Assembly (NCBI GenBank): GCA_019456305.1
Contig: VRUD01000017.1
Location: 1 to 58,990 of the forward strand
From: Cytophagales bacterium
GTDB lineage: Bacteria > Bacteroidota > Bacteroidia > Cytophagales > VRUD01
Length of the DNA: 58,990 bases
Reading direction: 5' to 3'
Shown in pieces: positions 16,079 to 27,743 of the stretch; the first letter of the stretch is position 1; every line of letters starts with the position of its first letter. The notes beneath the pieces are model-generated. The model was given only the letters and a program-made list of their open reading frames with translations, had not been told where the DNA came from and searched no databases. Both the position numbers and the translations under genes were made by a program.

Positions 16079-16140
16079 GTGTGCGGAATTTGTGGAATTG
16101 CAAATGTGCTGTGCTGCGAAGCGTTGGGGTCTTTCGGAAA
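16079..16140 (+). pseudogene. asnB start stub fused to a dispersed repeat
   Basis: A GTG at 16079 begins an open frame encoding VCGICGIAN, the N-terminus of a class II glutamine amidotransferase and nearly the same as the start of asnB at 18424 (MCGICGIAS). After nine codons the similarity stops. The following 37 bases match a non-coding repeat at about 32.82 kb. Either an asnB paralogue was truncated here, or the start of the asnB gene was copied when the 2.3 kb island was inserted. Confidence 0.55.
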
Positions 16141-16292: not shown

Positions 16293-17057
16293 ATGAAACA
16301 TTTTATAATTGATACAGAAAAAAATCGAGTTAAGGACTTGGCTGAATTGGATGAAGATACAATAACAATTAGACGAATTGAAGCAGCCAATATGGATGAA
16401 GTGATGGACTCCTCATTGTTTATCAACACAAAGTATGACATGCGTTCATCTGGTAATGCCTTAACTCCTGGAGCTTTTGATGTTAGAACGGACAAGCAAA
16501 CTGGGAAAGTTGCAGTTTTGCTTTCTCATCGAATTGAAGAGTGTCGGAGAACGACAATAGAGCAGCATGGGAAGGGTAAACTGACAGTATTTTACGAGAC
16601 CTTAGATGATATTTTAAATGGCATAAAAAAAAAAGAGGAAGAAAGCAGAGTAAATATTAAAGAGGAAATTAAGAATTGGCAAAATGCAGTAAATGACCTG
16701 TTTGATACAATTTCAACGGATTGGTTGAAAAAATATGCTCCAAACATTACAACAAAAATGACGGGGATTAAAATTACAGAGGAGTTGACAGGACAATACG
16801 GTATCAATCAATTGCATATCAGCTTAATTAAGAACAAGGAAATTGTTCTTATTCCAAGAGCTACTTTTGTCATTGGAAGTCATGGAAGAATTGATATGAT
16901 GATTAAGGGAATAAGACATGATCCGATAATGATTATTCGATTCAGAGGAAACGGCAAGGATAGGTGGGAAATTATTTTTGACCGTAATATTCGAGACAGG
17001 ATAGAATTTAACAAGGCACAGCTTGAAAATATAATCACTGATGTTATCTACGGATAA
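16293..17057 (+). CDS. Unrecognised protein, first gene of a HEPN module
   Basis: I do not recognise this 254-residue protein. It is rich in Ile, Lys and Glu, with no signal peptide or transmembrane segment. A short charged helical stretch lies near residues 108-125 (IKKKEEESRVNIKEEIKNW). The C-terminal half is predicted beta-rich (INQLHISLIKNKEIVLIPRATFVIG). Its stop codon overlaps the start of the HEPN gene by 17 bases, so the two are translationally coupled. It could be the antitoxin or the sensor of the HEPN partner. It lies in a degraded defence-type island between polysaccharide genes. Confidence 0.7.
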   Translation: MKHFIIDTEKNRVKDLAELDEDTITIRRIEAANMDEVMDSSLFINTKYDMRSSGNALTPGAFDVRTDKQTGKVAVLLSHRIEECRRTTIEQHGKGKLTVFYETLDDILNGIKKKEEESRVNIKEEIKNWQNAVNDLFDTISTDWLKKYAPNITTKMTGIKITEELTGQYGINQLHISLIKNKEIVLIPRATFVIGSHGRIDMMIKGIRHDPIMIIRFRGNGKDRWEIIFDRNIRDRIEFNKAQLENIITDVIYG

Positions 17058-17625
17058 ATTCGAGGAATATTGTGAGGAGTTAGACAATTTGAAGGACTAT
17101 TGTCAGGTCATAAAAACCGCTTCGCATAATGTTAAAACTAAGCTGGGAAAGGAAAGCTATTTAACTGATGAGAGGTTAGATGCTTTGATTGGTAAACCGA
17201 CTTCTATTTTGGAAGCAGCTCTGGACAGAAAAACAACCATTGCTTGTTTCTTGTTGTATATTTCTGCATTTGAGAGAATATGTTTTCATATCTATGATGG
17301 CTCTCTGAAGAAGACAAAGGAATTTGTATCGAAAAATGGTCAGCAAAAAAGAGCCGGGGATATCCTGCTTAAAACCATCATGGATTTCTACTCGTTCAGT
17401 GAAGTCAAAAAGTTGTTTGGTGGAATATCTGACAAGGATAAAAAATATTTAGTAATACTGATTTGTTCTCGGAATTATTTTGCACATGGAGAAAAGAATG
17501 AGGGGGATTTGAACTATGATAAAAAAAGAAGCCATAAAGAAAAAGAGGCGGAGATTTTTGCTATGATAGAAGATTTGGATGAAATACATGAACGGTGCAA
17601 GGAGTTGTTAAAGTATCTACTATAA
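17041..17625 (+). CDS. HEPN-type putative RNase, second gene of the module
   Basis: The 194-residue, largely helical protein has a conserved-looking CSRNYFAHGEKNE near residues 142-154. Arg144-X4-His149 fits the RX4-6H active site of HEPN ribonucleases. A helix with FLLYISAFERICFHIYD precedes it, as in other HEPN folds. It overlaps the upstream gene by 17 bases. HEPN RNases are effectors in toxin-antitoxin, abortive-infection and CRISPR-linked systems. The family within HEPN is not one I can name, and the catalytic role is inferred from the motif. Confidence 0.6.
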   Translation: MLSTDKFEEYCEELDNLKDYCQVIKTASHNVKTKLGKESYLTDERLDALIGKPTSILEAALDRKTTIACFLLYISAFERICFHIYDGSLKKTKEFVSKNGQQKRAGDILLKTIMDFYSFSEVKKLFGGISDKDKKYLVILICSRNYFAHGEKNEGDLNYDKKRSHKEKEAEIFAMIEDLDEIHERCKELLKYLL

Positions 17626-17693
17626 TTTGCGGGTATGCAAAGCCAAGTTCATTTCAATTTTGCTTTGACCTATGAAAATAAAATGATTGTAAA

Positions 17694-17831
17694 TCAAGAA
17701 TAATATCTTCCAATGGTATTCCTGATAATATCATAATCTTTTTCATCAATCAGTTTTGCTTCAAAGCCGTATTGCGTTCTGTGTGCTTCATCAGCAATCA
17801 CTACAATGATATTTTCGGTGATGGGTTTCAA
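17694..17831 (-). pseudogene. Type I restriction HsdR fragment (DEAH motor)
   Basis: On the minus strand this stretch encodes IIVVIADEAHRTQYGFEAKL in a frame that ends at a TGA. That is the Walker B/DEAH region of type I restriction R subunits. Neither the Walker A region before it nor the helicase domain after it is present. It follows the RhuM fragment by one base and belongs to the same degraded locus. Confidence 0.65.
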
Positions 17832-17832
17832 A

Positions 17833-18159
17833 TTACTTTTTCTTTTTTGGTGGATTTAGTTTCTTAACTGCCTTGTCAAAATCACTTTCAATTTCATTGT
17901 TGTAGAATTTTTGATTCCGTTCCACCATTCGTCCACCTTCTTTTCCAACTTGTAAGAAATCCTTACAAGTTGCCGCTTCATTCAATTCACCTTCTTCAAA
18001 AATATTTTTGAGGTGAATGGTTATGTTTTGTGGCGTAGTTTGAAACAGTTCTGCCATCAGTTTTTGCGTAAGCCAAACGGTTTCGTTTTCCAAACGAACT
18101 TCTAATTTGGTTTCGCCTGTTTCGGTGGTGTAAATTATTATTTGAGAATTATGCGTCAT
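17833..18159 (-). pseudogene. Truncated RhuM-family protein
   Basis: The first 70 of 108 residues match the start of RhuM-family proteins, which often sit in type I restriction loci. Visible marks are IIIYTTETGETKLEVRLENETVWLTQ, then MAELFQTTPQNIT and IFEEGELNE. Normal members continue for about 250 more residues. Here the frame jumps to what looks like the RhuM C-terminal end (SDFDKAVKKLN) and stops in a Lys-rich tail. The ATG overlaps the stop of an hsdR fragment upstream. I read it as an internally deleted, inactive gene. Confidence 0.65.
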
Positions 18160-18423: not shown

Positions 18424-20340
18424 ATGTGCGGAATCTGCGGAATTGCCTCTCCCCTGAATTTCAATGAACGTGATGCTATTGTTCATAAAATGAACAATGC
18501 AATCACCCATCGTGGACCCGATGAAAACGGATTTTATTCTTCAGGATTTTGTACGCTGGCAATGAGCCGTCTGTCAATAATTGACCTGAAAGGCGGCAAA
18601 CAGCCCATATTCAATGAAAATGATCAGTATTGTGTTATTTTTAATGGAGAAATATATAACTATAAAGAACTAAAAGAAGATTTAAGTTCAAAAGGGCATA
18701 AGTTTAAAACTAATACTGATACAGAAGTAATTGTACATTTATACGAAGAATATGGAGCAGATACGCCCAGGTATTTAAAAGGAATGTTCGCTTTTTGTGT
18801 CTGCGATATAAAAAATGAAGCGCTCTTTTTTGCCAGAGATCGTTTTGGTGAAAAGCCCTTATATTATTATTACAAAAAAGGGGTTGGAATAGCTTTTTCA
18901 AGCGAAATTGCGAGCTTGTTAAGTTACCCTGCCGTTCCGCGAATTCTTGATTTTGAAGCTTTAGGCTATTATCTGAAAGTAAGCATTGTTCCGGAACCTC
19001 TCACGTTGTTTAAAGATATCAAAAGCCTGCCTCCAGGATGCTGGCTTGAATATAAGGATGACAATATTAAAGTAAAATCTTATCATCAAATTGATTATGC
19101 ACCTGATAAAAACCTAAAAACCATATCAGATGTCATAGACTTGATCAATCCTGTGCTTGAAAAGGCAGTAAAAAGACAGACAATAAGTGACGTACCTATC
19201 GGGGCTTTTTTATCAGGGGGCATTGATTCAAGCACAGTAGTTGCCAAGCTTCAGCAAAATTCATCAAAAAATATCAAAACTTTTACCGTAAAGTTTGAAG
19301 AATCAACTTATGATGAAAGTAAGATAGCTAAACAGGTTGCTCAACATTTAGGTACAGAACATCATGAGATCACTATACCTAATATGAATTTTACACCCGG
19401 TATGTTCTGGACAATCTTAGAACATACCGGGCTTCCTTTTCCGGATTCTTCTGCAATACCAACCTACATCATCACAAAAGAAATAAGCAAATACGTCAAA
19501 GTAGCCCTTTCGGGTGACGGGGGAGACGAAGTTTTTGCCGGCTATAATATTTTTCAGTGGGGTAATAAGATCCAATCTCTGAAAAAGATGCCTCCCGGTT
19601 TAAGAAAGTTTAATTCATGGGTACTAAACAAGTTAACATCAAGTCCGTTTTTCGCAATATCGAAATTACGACAAATAAGAAAAGCAACAAATATTTCATT
19701 ATTTGATGATAATTACCTTCCTGTGGAATTGCACAGCATGTTTAATACCCATCAGTTAAATAAGATGATCGTTGACAAAACTACTTTGGAATATGTTAAT
19801 GGCCAAATGCCATTATTAACTTATTTACCCGAAGAAGCAGAAGACTGGACACAGTTAAAACGCCTCATGTACTACAGATTAAAACATAATTTACCATTGG
19901 ATATGCTCACTAAAGTTGACAGAATGAGTATGGCAAATTCATTGGAAGTAAGAACCCCTTTTCTTGACGTTGATCTGTTTGATGAAAGCATGAAAATACC
20001 CGACAAATTTTTGATAAAAAACGGGAAAGGAAAATATATTATCAGGCAGCTTATGAAAAACAGTTTGCCTCGCATCGTTTTTGAGCATCCAAAATCGGGT
20101 TTTAGCATTCCGCTCCATAAATATCAAAATAAAGCTTACGAAGAACTAGCCAATTCATTGATCAATGAAAACAACCCAATCAGTGAACTTTTTTCAAAGC
20201 AGTATATAAATATAGTTAAAGAGTTGGCATTTACCAGGAAAAGTGATAAAGGAGATTTTAGCGTTTATCAAATTACGCATCAATTGTGGGCTATTATGCA
20301 TTTGTTTGGATGGGTAAAAAGGTTTGGGGTATCAGTATAA
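18424..20340 (+). CDS. asnB: Asparagine synthase (glutamine-hydrolysing) family protein
   Basis: The 638-residue amidotransferase starts MCGICGIAS, so Cys2 is the N-terminal nucleophile after Met removal. THRGPDENG and SRLSIIDL mark the glutaminase domain. The synthetase domain has the PP-loop LSGGIDSSTV and LSGDGGDEVFAGY. Length and layout fit the AsnB-like enzymes of surface-polysaccharide loci, which amidate sugar acids or other acids, as well as housekeeping AsnB. The position between a polymerase/ligase and a glycosyltransferase favours the former. Confidence 0.9.
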   Translation: MCGICGIASPLNFNERDAIVHKMNNAITHRGPDENGFYSSGFCTLAMSRLSIIDLKGGKQPIFNENDQYCVIFNGEIYNYKELKEDLSSKGHKFKTNTDTEVIVHLYEEYGADTPRYLKGMFAFCVCDIKNEALFFARDRFGEKPLYYYYKKGVGIAFSSEIASLLSYPAVPRILDFEALGYYLKVSIVPEPLTLFKDIKSLPPGCWLEYKDDNIKVKSYHQIDYAPDKNLKTISDVIDLINPVLEKAVKRQTISDVPIGAFLSGGIDSSTVVAKLQQNSSKNIKTFTVKFEESTYDESKIAKQVAQHLGTEHHEITIPNMNFTPGMFWTILEHTGLPFPDSSAIPTYIITKEISKYVKVALSGDGGDEVFAGYNIFQWGNKIQSLKKMPPGLRKFNSWVLNKLTSSPFFAISKLRQIRKATNISLFDDNYLPVELHSMFNTHQLNKMIVDKTTLEYVNGQMPLLTYLPEEAEDWTQLKRLMYYRLKHNLPLDMLTKVDRMSMANSLEVRTPFLDVDLFDESMKIPDKFLIKNGKGKYIIRQLMKNSLPRIVFEHPKSGFSIPLHKYQNKAYEELANSLINENNPISELFSKQYINIVKELAFTRKSDKGDFSVYQITHQLWAIMHLFGWVKRFGVSV

Positions 20341-23867: not shown

Positions 23868-24266
23868 TTAGACATAAAAGTTCATTTTATCCAAAATTAT
23901 TTTCCTAAATTTATCAGCTATATTAATTGCATCTTGCAGTTCTTTATCAGTTGGCTCAACAATTTTTTCAGGGTATCGTATTTCAACAGCATAATCTTCT
24001 AATTTGTCAACCATCTTATAATATTGATCTGAAAATTTGTCTTTTGAGCTAATTAAATCCAATAGATATGTAAGATTGTGTTTATGTTCAAAATCAATAT
24101 CTAAAAATATCAAGTATCCTTTTAGATATTTTTCTACGGCTTGCTGACAATGAAAACCGATAATATCTTTATATTCAGCAATGTGTTCAAGGGTCAATTT
24201 TGAAGTACCTAAATCATGATCACCTTTAATAATCCAATTTTTAATAATTTCTTGCTTACTTTTCAT
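23868..24266 (-). CDS. HEPN-domain protein (MNT/HEPN pair)
   Basis: The 132-residue helical protein shows the pattern of the MNT-associated HEPN group: WIIKGDHDLGTSKLTLE, then FHCQQAVEKYLKGYLIF, then KHNLTYLLDLI, and AVEIRYP near residue 95. Its start overlaps the nucleotidyltransferase gene by 11 bp, and its stop abuts the ABC exporter start. In characterised MNT/HEPN modules the HEPN protein is the RNase toxin, and the nucleotidyltransferase silences it by AMPylation. Which subtype this is cannot be told from the sequence alone. Confidence 0.8.
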   Translation of the reverse strand: MKSKQEIIKNWIIKGDHDLGTSKLTLEHIAEYKDIIGFHCQQAVEKYLKGYLIFLDIDFEHKHNLTYLLDLISSKDKFSDQYYKMVDKLEDYAVEIRYPEKIVEPTDKELQDAINIADKFRKIILDKMNFYV

Positions 24267-24570
24267 ACACTACCTTACCCGTTTTTAACACATTATTAAT
24301 AAAAGTAAATCTTAAATCTTTATCTTCGTTGAATTCTTTATTCGTATAGATTACGATATCAATAGGTATCATTGATCTCCAAAAATATTTCCTTACTTCA
24401 CTGCCTCTTTTATACCTTGGTAATTTAGTATCTTTTATTACCAATAAATCTAAATCACTATGTTCATTTGGGTTTTTATTGGCATAAGAACCAAAAAGAA
24501 TGATTTTTTCAGGGTTGTAATTCTCAACAATTTTGTTTATAACCTCATTAATTTTTCTTTGACTTATCAT
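24256..24570 (-). CDS. MNT-type nucleotidyltransferase (antitoxin)
   Basis: The 104-residue minimal nucleotidyltransferase contains ILFGSYANKN followed by SDLDLLVIK, giving the GSX-DXD catalytic pattern. A later acidic residue in IPIDIVIY completes the metal site. It overlaps the HEPN gene by 11 bp and sits 20 bp after the DUF4476 gene's stop on the same strand. Its expected role is to modify and inactivate the HEPN partner. Confidence 0.85.
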   Translation of the reverse strand: MISQRKINEVINKIVENYNPEKIILFGSYANKNPNEHSDLDLLVIKDTKLPRYKRGSEVRKYFWRSMIPIDIVIYTNKEFNEDKDLRFTFINNVLKTGKVVYEK

Positions 24571-27084: not shown

Positions 27085-27360
27085 ATGAACACTATAGAAG
27101 TAAACATCAAAAGCAATACAAAAGACGAGTTGTTTGTATTACGTCTTAAAAGCGTCAAAAAATTGCAGTTCTTTAAGAAATTCCTGGAATTTATGGATTT
27201 TTCCAGAAAAAGTAATTCGATTGAAAAAAATAAATACAAGGATTTGCCTATTGAGCCAAGAGATCCAAACGTTGATTTTCTTGATTTAGCTGGTATTTGG
27301 AAAGGTAGAAATATCACTTTAAAAGAATTACGTAAAAAAGCATGGGGAGGGAGGGCATAA
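27085..27360 (+). CDS. Putative antitoxin of the PIN-toxin pair
   Basis: The small 91-residue basic protein has an N-terminal beta-strand (NTIEVNIKSN), a central Lys-rich helix and an IWKGRNITLKELRKKAW tail. Its 3' end overlaps the PIN gene by 19 bp. The tail resembles the toxin-binding ends of antitoxins. There is no clear DNA-binding fold. The role is inferred from size, position and overlap with the toxin. Confidence 0.65.
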   Translation: MNTIEVNIKSNTKDELFVLRLKSVKKLQFFKKFLEFMDFSRKSNSIEKNKYKDLPIEPRDPNVDFLDLAGIWKGRNITLKELRKKAWGGRA

Positions 27361-27743
27361 ATAATCGATTGGTATTGTGTGATAGCAATATTTTTATCAA
27401 TATTTTCGACAATCACCAACCTACTATTGATATTTATAAACAAATTGGCGCAAATAATGTTCTAATTTCTGACATATCCGTAATGGAATTATACAAAGGA
27501 ATGAGAAACAAAACTGAATTGAATAGAATGATCAAAAAGTTAAAAGGTATTCAGCGGCTGCATTTTAATGATGAAGTTTCAAAATTGGCAACAAAATATA
27601 TCAAAAAATACCATTTAAGTCAAGATTTAGAGATCCCTGATGCTATTATTGCTGCATCTGCTGTTAGATATAAATTACCCCTTTTTACCTATAATACCAA
27701 AGATTTTAAATTTATTCCCGGCATAAAACTTTATAAGTCTTGA
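27342..27743 (+). CDS. PIN-domain ribonuclease toxin (VapC-like)
   Basis: The 133-residue protein has the PIN acidic quartet: LCDSNIFIN (Asp14), SVMELYKGM (Glu), IPDAIIAA (Asp) and FTYNTKDF (Asp). VapC-type toxins cleave tRNA or rRNA and are silenced by the cognate antitoxin. The gene overlaps the upstream small gene and converges on the Lrp-family gene after 16 bp. Confidence 0.85.
   Translation: MGREGINNRLVLCDSNIFINIFDNHQPTIDIYKQIGANNVLISDISVMELYKGMRNKTELNRMIKKLKGIQRLHFNDEVSKLATKYIKKYHLSQDLEIPDAIIAASAVRYKLPLFTYNTKDFKFIPGIKLYKS

What the first reader, a model, noticed from the sequence alone, without database searches (positions are those of the whole stretch)
16293..17625. Unrecognised HEPN two-gene module inside a degraded defence island
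A 254-residue protein of no recognised family overlaps a 194-residue protein with an RX4H HEPN motif (RNYFAH). They sit between an asnB stub and fragments of a type I restriction locus, an accessory position typical of defence genes. The pair could be a new toxin-antitoxin or abortive-infection system.
Basis: partly seen in the sequence, partly recalled or inferred. Interest (0 to 1): 0.7.

Follow-up and report, generated by a model that had tools for sequence, protein, structure and literature searches.

The report
Undescribed HEPN RNase two-gene defence module
Two overlapping genes that match no family library form a rare, mobile pair found in distant bacteria, encoding a probable RNA-cutting toxin and a partner protein of a new family, most likely a toxin-antitoxin or phage-defence module.

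Summary
In detail: an intact 254-aa ORF (P1, 16293-17057) overlaps by 17 bp an intact 194-aa ORF (P2, 17041-17625) carrying RNYFAH. Neither matches Pfam, NCBIfam, PADLOC, PHROGs or PDB. A partner domain (P1's C-terminal ~150 aa) was found at 16 distinct loci in Bacteroidota, Pseudomonadota and Bacillota. At 14 of them a HEPN gene or its remnant follows directly on the same strand. Five of the 14 are held-out loci, not used to build the profiles. The predicted HEPN catalytic residues (E78, R144, H149, G150) are invariant in 10-11 homologues, most only 15-20% identical to the window protein. All nine intact pairs overlap by 4-17 bp, and the distances within the two families are correlated (Mantel r=0.67). 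The module sits in mobile and defence settings: small Klebsiella ColRNAI plasmids, beside Xre-RES and MqsA/ParE genes, and as the last two genes of a methylase/GHKL/Z1/DUF4420 defence operon. Best reading: HEPN RNase effector plus cognate upstream regulator (antitoxin or sensor), a new variant of the HEPN toxin/abortive-infection theme. Toxicity, neutralisation, phage protection and fold were not testable here.

The parts
16293..17057 (+). P1, 254 aa partner protein: variable N-terminal extension (about residues 1-103) plus conserved C-terminal partner domain (about 104-254; conserved P188, G195, G198, W225)
   Evidence: ORF; domain defined by alignments A1, A4, A6; no known family
16602..17054 (+). 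conserved partner domain shared with 15 other loci
   Evidence: profile A6 and hmmsearch
17041..17625 (+). P2, 194 aa HEPN-superfamily protein, predicted metal-independent RNase
   Evidence: ORF; E78/R144/H149/G150 invariant; relatives L030, L051 and L053 give sub-threshold Pfam HEPN hits
17470..17487 (+). RNYFAH codons, HEPN R-x4-H catalytic motif (residues 144-149)
   Evidence: sequence; alignment
17041..17057 (+). 17-bp overlap of the two genes; all nine intact pairs overlap by 4-17 bp
17646..17852 (-). fragment of a type I restriction HsdR subunit (SWI2/SNF2 ATPase), neighbour
   Evidence: Pfam PF18766 E=2.7e-4
17833..18159 (-). N-terminal fragment of a PDC-S05 family protein (RhuM-like by eye), neighbour
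   Evidence: PADLOC PDC-S05 E=2.1e-35
16080..16101 (+). 22-nt near copy of the asnB 5' end (asnB stub), left edge of the inserted segment
   Evidence: the repeat finder D2, 91% to 18425-18446

Best explanation
A two-gene toxin-antitoxin-like or abortive-infection module. P2 is a HEPN endoribonuclease: Arg144/His149, helped by Glu78, would cut RNA without metal and stop growth. P1, translated first and coupled by the 17-bp overlap, is its cognate regulator. Its conserved C-terminal domain most likely binds and holds P2 inactive. Its variable N-terminal extension (absent, or different, in relatives) would sense a trigger such as phage infection or failed restriction and release the RNase. Shown: the pair, its co-conservation and co-divergence, invariant predicted catalytic residues, fixed gene order, mobile and defence contexts. 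Inferred: RNase activity, toxicity, physical interaction, the sign of regulation (inhibition rather than activation), and the trigger.
For: (1) Partner domain at 16 distinct loci, 14 followed directly by a HEPN gene or remnant on the same strand. Five of these (G109, G284, G185, G248, G1063) were found by the partner profile alone, and all five had a HEPN-profile hit directly downstream. (2) Reciprocal searches: in one family of 59 genomes both profiles hit the same four genomes, with only weak extras on each side. In a second family the HEPN profile hit only the two partner-positive genomes. (3) E78, R144, H149, G150 invariant, matching the published HEPN signature of Rx4-6H, a polar residue after R, and an upstream acidic residue (PMC3710099). 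Relatives give HEPN hits: Csx1/Csm6 1e-4, ApeA 4e-4, RiboL-PSP 2e-4. (4) Inter-pair distances of the two families correlate, Mantel r=0.67, p about 1e-4, 9 pairs. (5) Contexts: 3.7-4.7 kb ColRNAI Klebsiella plasmids; beside Xre-RES and MqsA/ParE; last genes of a C5-methylase/GHKL/Z1/DUF4420 operon before an RmrA-like regulator; HsdR and PDC-S05 fragments in the window. (6) Regulator gene first, as in MNT-HEPN pairs (PMC3710099).
Against: No experiment. P2 itself matches no HEPN model; the assignment rests on motif conservation and sub-threshold hits of relatives. AlphaFold models from single sequences were unusable (mean pLDDT 44 and 36), so the fold is unproven. The partner domain occurs without HEPN in Rhizobium (L022) and Aneurinibacillus (L023), so it is not only an antitoxin of this toxin. 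Decay does not go strictly toxin-first: in L046 the partner carries the stop codon while HEPN is intact. Regulation could be activating rather than inhibiting.
Confidence: 0.66

Rival explanations
1. The pair is a plug-in suicide effector of restriction-type defence operons rather than an autonomous addiction module. P1 is an adaptor or sensor that activates the HEPN RNase when the linked restriction system fails, in the place AIPR holds in Z1/DUF4420 operons; P2 need not be toxic on its own.
For: In G1063 the pair starts 3 bp after DUF4420, in the operon C5-methylase/GHKL/Z1/DUF4420, with no AIPR in sight. Published Z1/DUF4420/methylase systems carry AIPR as an extra gene (PMC9523054). HsdR and PDC-S05 fragments lie beside the pair in the window.
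Against: Most other loci are not next to a restriction system: Klebsiella small plasmids, GroEL and glycosyltransferase neighbourhoods.
Confidence: 0.22
2. P2 is an inactive or regulatory HEPN (MtlR-like RNA binder) and the pair controls a host gene rather than acting in conflict.
For: Some HEPN families are regulatory (PMC3710099). Toxicity not shown here.
Against: Inactive HEPN families lose the Rx4-6H motif; here R, H and the acidic residue are invariant over very low overall identity. Sporadic distribution (4 of 395 genomes in the class) and plasmid carriage do not suit a housekeeping regulator.
Confidence: 0.06
3. The window copy is a relic: part of a decaying island, no longer expressed or functional, whatever its relatives do.
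For: Neighbouring hsdR, PDC-S05 and asnB pieces are truncated. HEPN or partner is broken in several relatives.
Against: Both window ORFs are full length with all conserved HEPN residues and the usual overlap.
Confidence: 0.2

Closest known systems
MNT-HEPN (HepT/MntA, type VII toxin-antitoxin)
   Same: two small overlapping genes, regulator first, HEPN RNase second with R-x4-H
   Different: P1 has no nucleotidyltransferase domain or hit; the HEPN is outside PF05168; inactivation by AMPylation is not expected
ApeA-like, MAE_28990, RiboL-PSP and Csx1/Csm6 HEPN families
   Same: R-[NHD]-x-x-x-H-G motif; relatives of P2 score just below the Pfam cut-offs
   Different: P2 itself is not recovered; different gene partner (MAE_28990 pairs with a ParB/DUF262 gene; a pair of that kind is seen in L043)
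Mza-like / Z1-DUF4420-methylase-AIPR defence operon
   Same: one relative (G1063) is embedded at the 3' end of such an operon
   Different: partner plus HEPN where an AIPR gene is usual; the window has only HsdR and PDC-S05 fragments
Classical type II toxin-antitoxin modules (RES-Xre, MqsRA, ParDE)
   Same: organisation, size, mobility, and co-location with such loci
   Different: neither protein belongs to a known type II family; neutralisation untested

Membership tests
HEPN superfamily (P2) | Rx4-6H motif with a polar N/D/H after R | tested here: met
   R-[NHD]-x-x-[AGV]-H in all 11 sequences
HEPN superfamily (P2) | conserved acidic residue upstream, in helix 2 | tested here: met
   E78 invariant in 10 of 10 sequences that cover it; its place in helix 2 not shown
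HEPN superfamily (P2) | profile match to a HEPN model | tested here: inconclusive
   P2 none; relatives sub-threshold: PF18739 4e-4, PF18735 2e-4, Csx1/Csm6 1e-4
HEPN superfamily (P2) | four-helix bundle fold | tested here: inconclusive
   all-helical but low-confidence model, pLDDT 44
HEPN superfamily (P2) | RNase activity | not testable with these tools
   needs a biochemical assay
MNT-HEPN type VII toxin-antitoxin | partner is a minimal nucleotidyltransferase | tested here: not met
   no MNT or other family hit for P1 or its relatives
toxin-antitoxin module in general | two small, overlapping, co-inherited genes | tested here: met
   nine intact pairs overlap by 4-17 bp; 14 of 16 partner loci have a HEPN gene or remnant next door
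toxin-antitoxin module in general | one protein toxic, the other neutralises it | not testable with these tools
   needs an expression assay
abortive-infection / defence system | located with defence genes or on mobile elements | tested here: met
abortive-infection / defence system | protects against phage | not testable with these tools
   needs a phage challenge
Mza / Z1-DUF4420 defence operon (window locus) | Z1 and DUF4420 genes in the same operon | tested here: not met
   no such gene among the ORFs beside the window pair (read by eye); present only at the G1063 locus

The most novel reading that the evidence does not exclude
The partner domain (P-x-G-x-x-x-x-G-x-x-G-R-[VI]-D, about 150 aa) is a new family of HEPN regulator with interchangeable N-terminal sensor segments, forming a portable effector cassette. 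The cassette travels alone on small plasmids as a toxin-antitoxin unit, or docks into restriction-type operons in the slot usually held by AIPR.
Probability: 0.35. Interest if true: 0.7.

Novelty: new variant of a known kind. Interest (0 to 1): 0.52.

Why it matters
HEPN RNases are major effectors in toxin-antitoxin, abortive-infection and CRISPR systems. A further HEPN lineage with its own non-nucleotidyltransferase regulator would add another way of controlling such an RNase, and would add an element missing from the defence-system models tested here. Its carriage as cargo of 4-kb Klebsiella plasmids makes it easy to test in a laboratory E. coli strain.

Tried and rejected
Exact-peptide scans of viral and genome contigs with six proteins and one degenerate-motif scan of the viral contigs gave no confirmed relative; the module is rare and too divergent for exact peptides. 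tblastn of the window proteins against plasmids and phages found nothing; relatives appeared only by stepping through L003. Most weak hits were chance, and none of those loci gave a HEPN hit. The idea that the toxin gene always decays first was dropped: three loci fit (L012, L028, L033), L046 contradicts, and in L048 the HEPN has a stop and the partner is 5'-truncated. G901's weak HEPN hit is a separate HEPN/DUF262-type pair (DUF262 by eye).

Full report
What is there. The window carries two intact, overlapping genes at 16293-17057 (P1, 254 aa) and 17041-17625 (P2, 194 aa). Neither has a significant match in Pfam, NCBIfam, PADLOC, PHROGs or the PDB. The window genome (G000) is the only one held of its family, and 290 other genomes of its order showed no relative of P1 at the cut-off. 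The pair lies inside a polysaccharide gene cluster. To its left is a 22-nt near copy of the asnB start, which lies 2.3 kb downstream. To its right is an HsdR-like fragment (SWI2/SNF2, E=2.7e-4) and an N-terminal fragment of a PADLOC PDC-S05 protein (E=2e-35).

Finding relatives. P1 against 395 genomes of its class gave one weak true lead, L003 in G781 (E=5e-4). There a 162-aa homologue of the C-terminal part of P1 is followed, with a 4-bp overlap, by a 189-aa protein with RNWLAHG. A second lead, L012 in G810, shows the same pair with a frameshifted HEPN gene. From L003, tblastn reached Klebsiella and Raoultella plasmids, including 3.7-4.7 kb ColRNAI plasmids. A 188-aa and a 183-aa gene there overlap by 8 bp, and the second reads RHWLAHG. 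Profiles built from these found G909, G1018, G1005 and G1038, then G109, G185, G284, G248 and G1063. A Methylobacterium conjugative plasmid carries the partner with a broken HEPN next to a transposase.

Co-conservation. Sixteen distinct loci carry the partner domain; at fourteen the next gene on the same strand is a HEPN gene or remnant. The five loci found last were not in either profile, and all five have a HEPN-profile hit directly downstream. The false-positive loci have none. In a family of 59 genomes, partner and HEPN profiles hit the same four genomes; two of these four had contributed sequences to the HEPN profile. The weak extra on the HEPN side, G901, is a HEPN/DUF262 pair of another kind; the weak extra on the partner side, G1053, is a match inside an 819-residue open frame. 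In a second family the HEPN profile hit only the two partner-positive genomes. All nine intact pairs overlap by 4-17 bp. Distances between the nine pairs correlate across the two families (Mantel r=0.67, p about 1e-4). The few close pairs show dN/dS below 1 (about 0.1-0.5), on very few differences.

HEPN assignment. With most pairs of HEPN proteins only 11-25% identical, the invariant positions are E78, R144, H149 and G150 (window numbering), and N, H or D follows the arginine. This is the signature described for the superfamily: Rx4-6H, a polar residue after R, and an upstream acidic residue in helix 2, together forming the RNase site (PMC3710099). P2 itself is not picked up by HEPN models, but its relatives are, below cut-off: G1018 by ApeA HEPN (4e-4) and Csx1/Csm6 (1e-4), G185 by RiboL-PSP HEPN (2e-4), G1063 by ApeA HEPN (1e-3). 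The single-sequence AlphaFold model is all-helical but of low confidence, so the fold remains to be shown.

The partner. The conserved part is about 150 aa: a helix, then a predicted strand-rich domain with an invariant E, P, G and W and the core P-x-G-x-x-x-x-G-x-x-G-[RK]-[VIL]-[DNE]. The window, G909 and G1063 proteins carry N-terminal extensions of about 100-120 aa; BLAST of the window protein detected no similarity to the other two there. Other members have almost none. The domain also occurs without HEPN on a Rhizobium and an Aneurinibacillus plasmid. It matches no library and no solved structure.

Contexts. In G1018 the pair is next to an Xre-RES pair. In G185 and G284 it lies among MqsA, ParE and other antitoxin genes. 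In G1063 it follows DUF4420 by 3 bp in a run of sigma-54-type ATPase, C5-methylase, GHKL ATPase (weakly MzaB), Z1 (MzaC), DUF4420, partner, HEPN and an RmrA-like regulator. Related Z1/DUF4420/methylase systems have been described with AIPR as an additional gene (PMC9523054); no AIPR was seen here. Other loci stand alone beside ordinary genes, as expected of a mobile unit.

Mechanism. The best-supported reading is a HEPN RNase under control of its cognate upstream partner, as toxin-antitoxin or abortive infection. The pair, its conservation and its settings are shown; activity, toxicity, binding and trigger are inferred. The partner-first order agrees with the argument made for MNT-HEPN pairs (PMC3710099), but no nucleotidyltransferase is present. 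Whether the partner inhibits or activates is open. Broken copies do not settle it: HEPN is broken with partner intact at three loci (L012, L028, L033), the reverse is seen at L046, and at L048 the HEPN has a stop and the partner is 5'-truncated.

Novelty. No library tested contains either family. No open-access paper mentions the Klebsiella protein accessions, and searches for HEPN systems found none that matches. Subscription literature could not be searched. I rate it a new variant of a known kind: a known effector superfamily with a partner family not described in the sources searched.

Noticed in passing
window 23868-24570 (-): A second HEPN-type pair: a 104-aa protein with the nucleotidyltransferase motif (GSYANKNPNEHSDLDLL) overlapping a 132-aa HEPN-like protein, i.e. 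a classical MNT-HEPN module 6 kb from the finding (read by eye).
   Followed up: no
window 27085-27743 (+): A 91-aa protein overlapping a 133-aa PIN-domain-like protein, probably a VapBC-type toxin-antitoxin pair (read by eye).
   Followed up: no
L051 2039-10598: C5-methylase, GHKL ATPase, Z1, DUF4420, partner, HEPN and RmrA-like genes in one run: a Mza-like operon with the HEPN pair where AIPR is usual.
   Followed up: partly
L033 6001-6525 and L029 970-1500: The 5' part of the HEPN gene is replaced by short repetitive DNA (GATTAGACAGATTAGAC...) while the partner is intact; the sister genome G1018 has the whole gene.
   Followed up: partly
L046 1309-1857 and L048 791-1330: Single in-frame stop codons in otherwise about 97% identical partner (L046) and HEPN (L048) genes of one genus.
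   Followed up: partly
L022 4905-5420 and L023 4920-5384: Partner domain without any HEPN gene on Rhizobium and Aneurinibacillus plasmids (the latter beside DUF262); it must have another role or another partner there.
   Followed up: partly
L020 1472-2582: The pair is a main cargo of small Klebsiella ColRNAI plasmids (few other annotated genes) and also occurs on an IncFIB plasmid (L021).
   Followed up: partly
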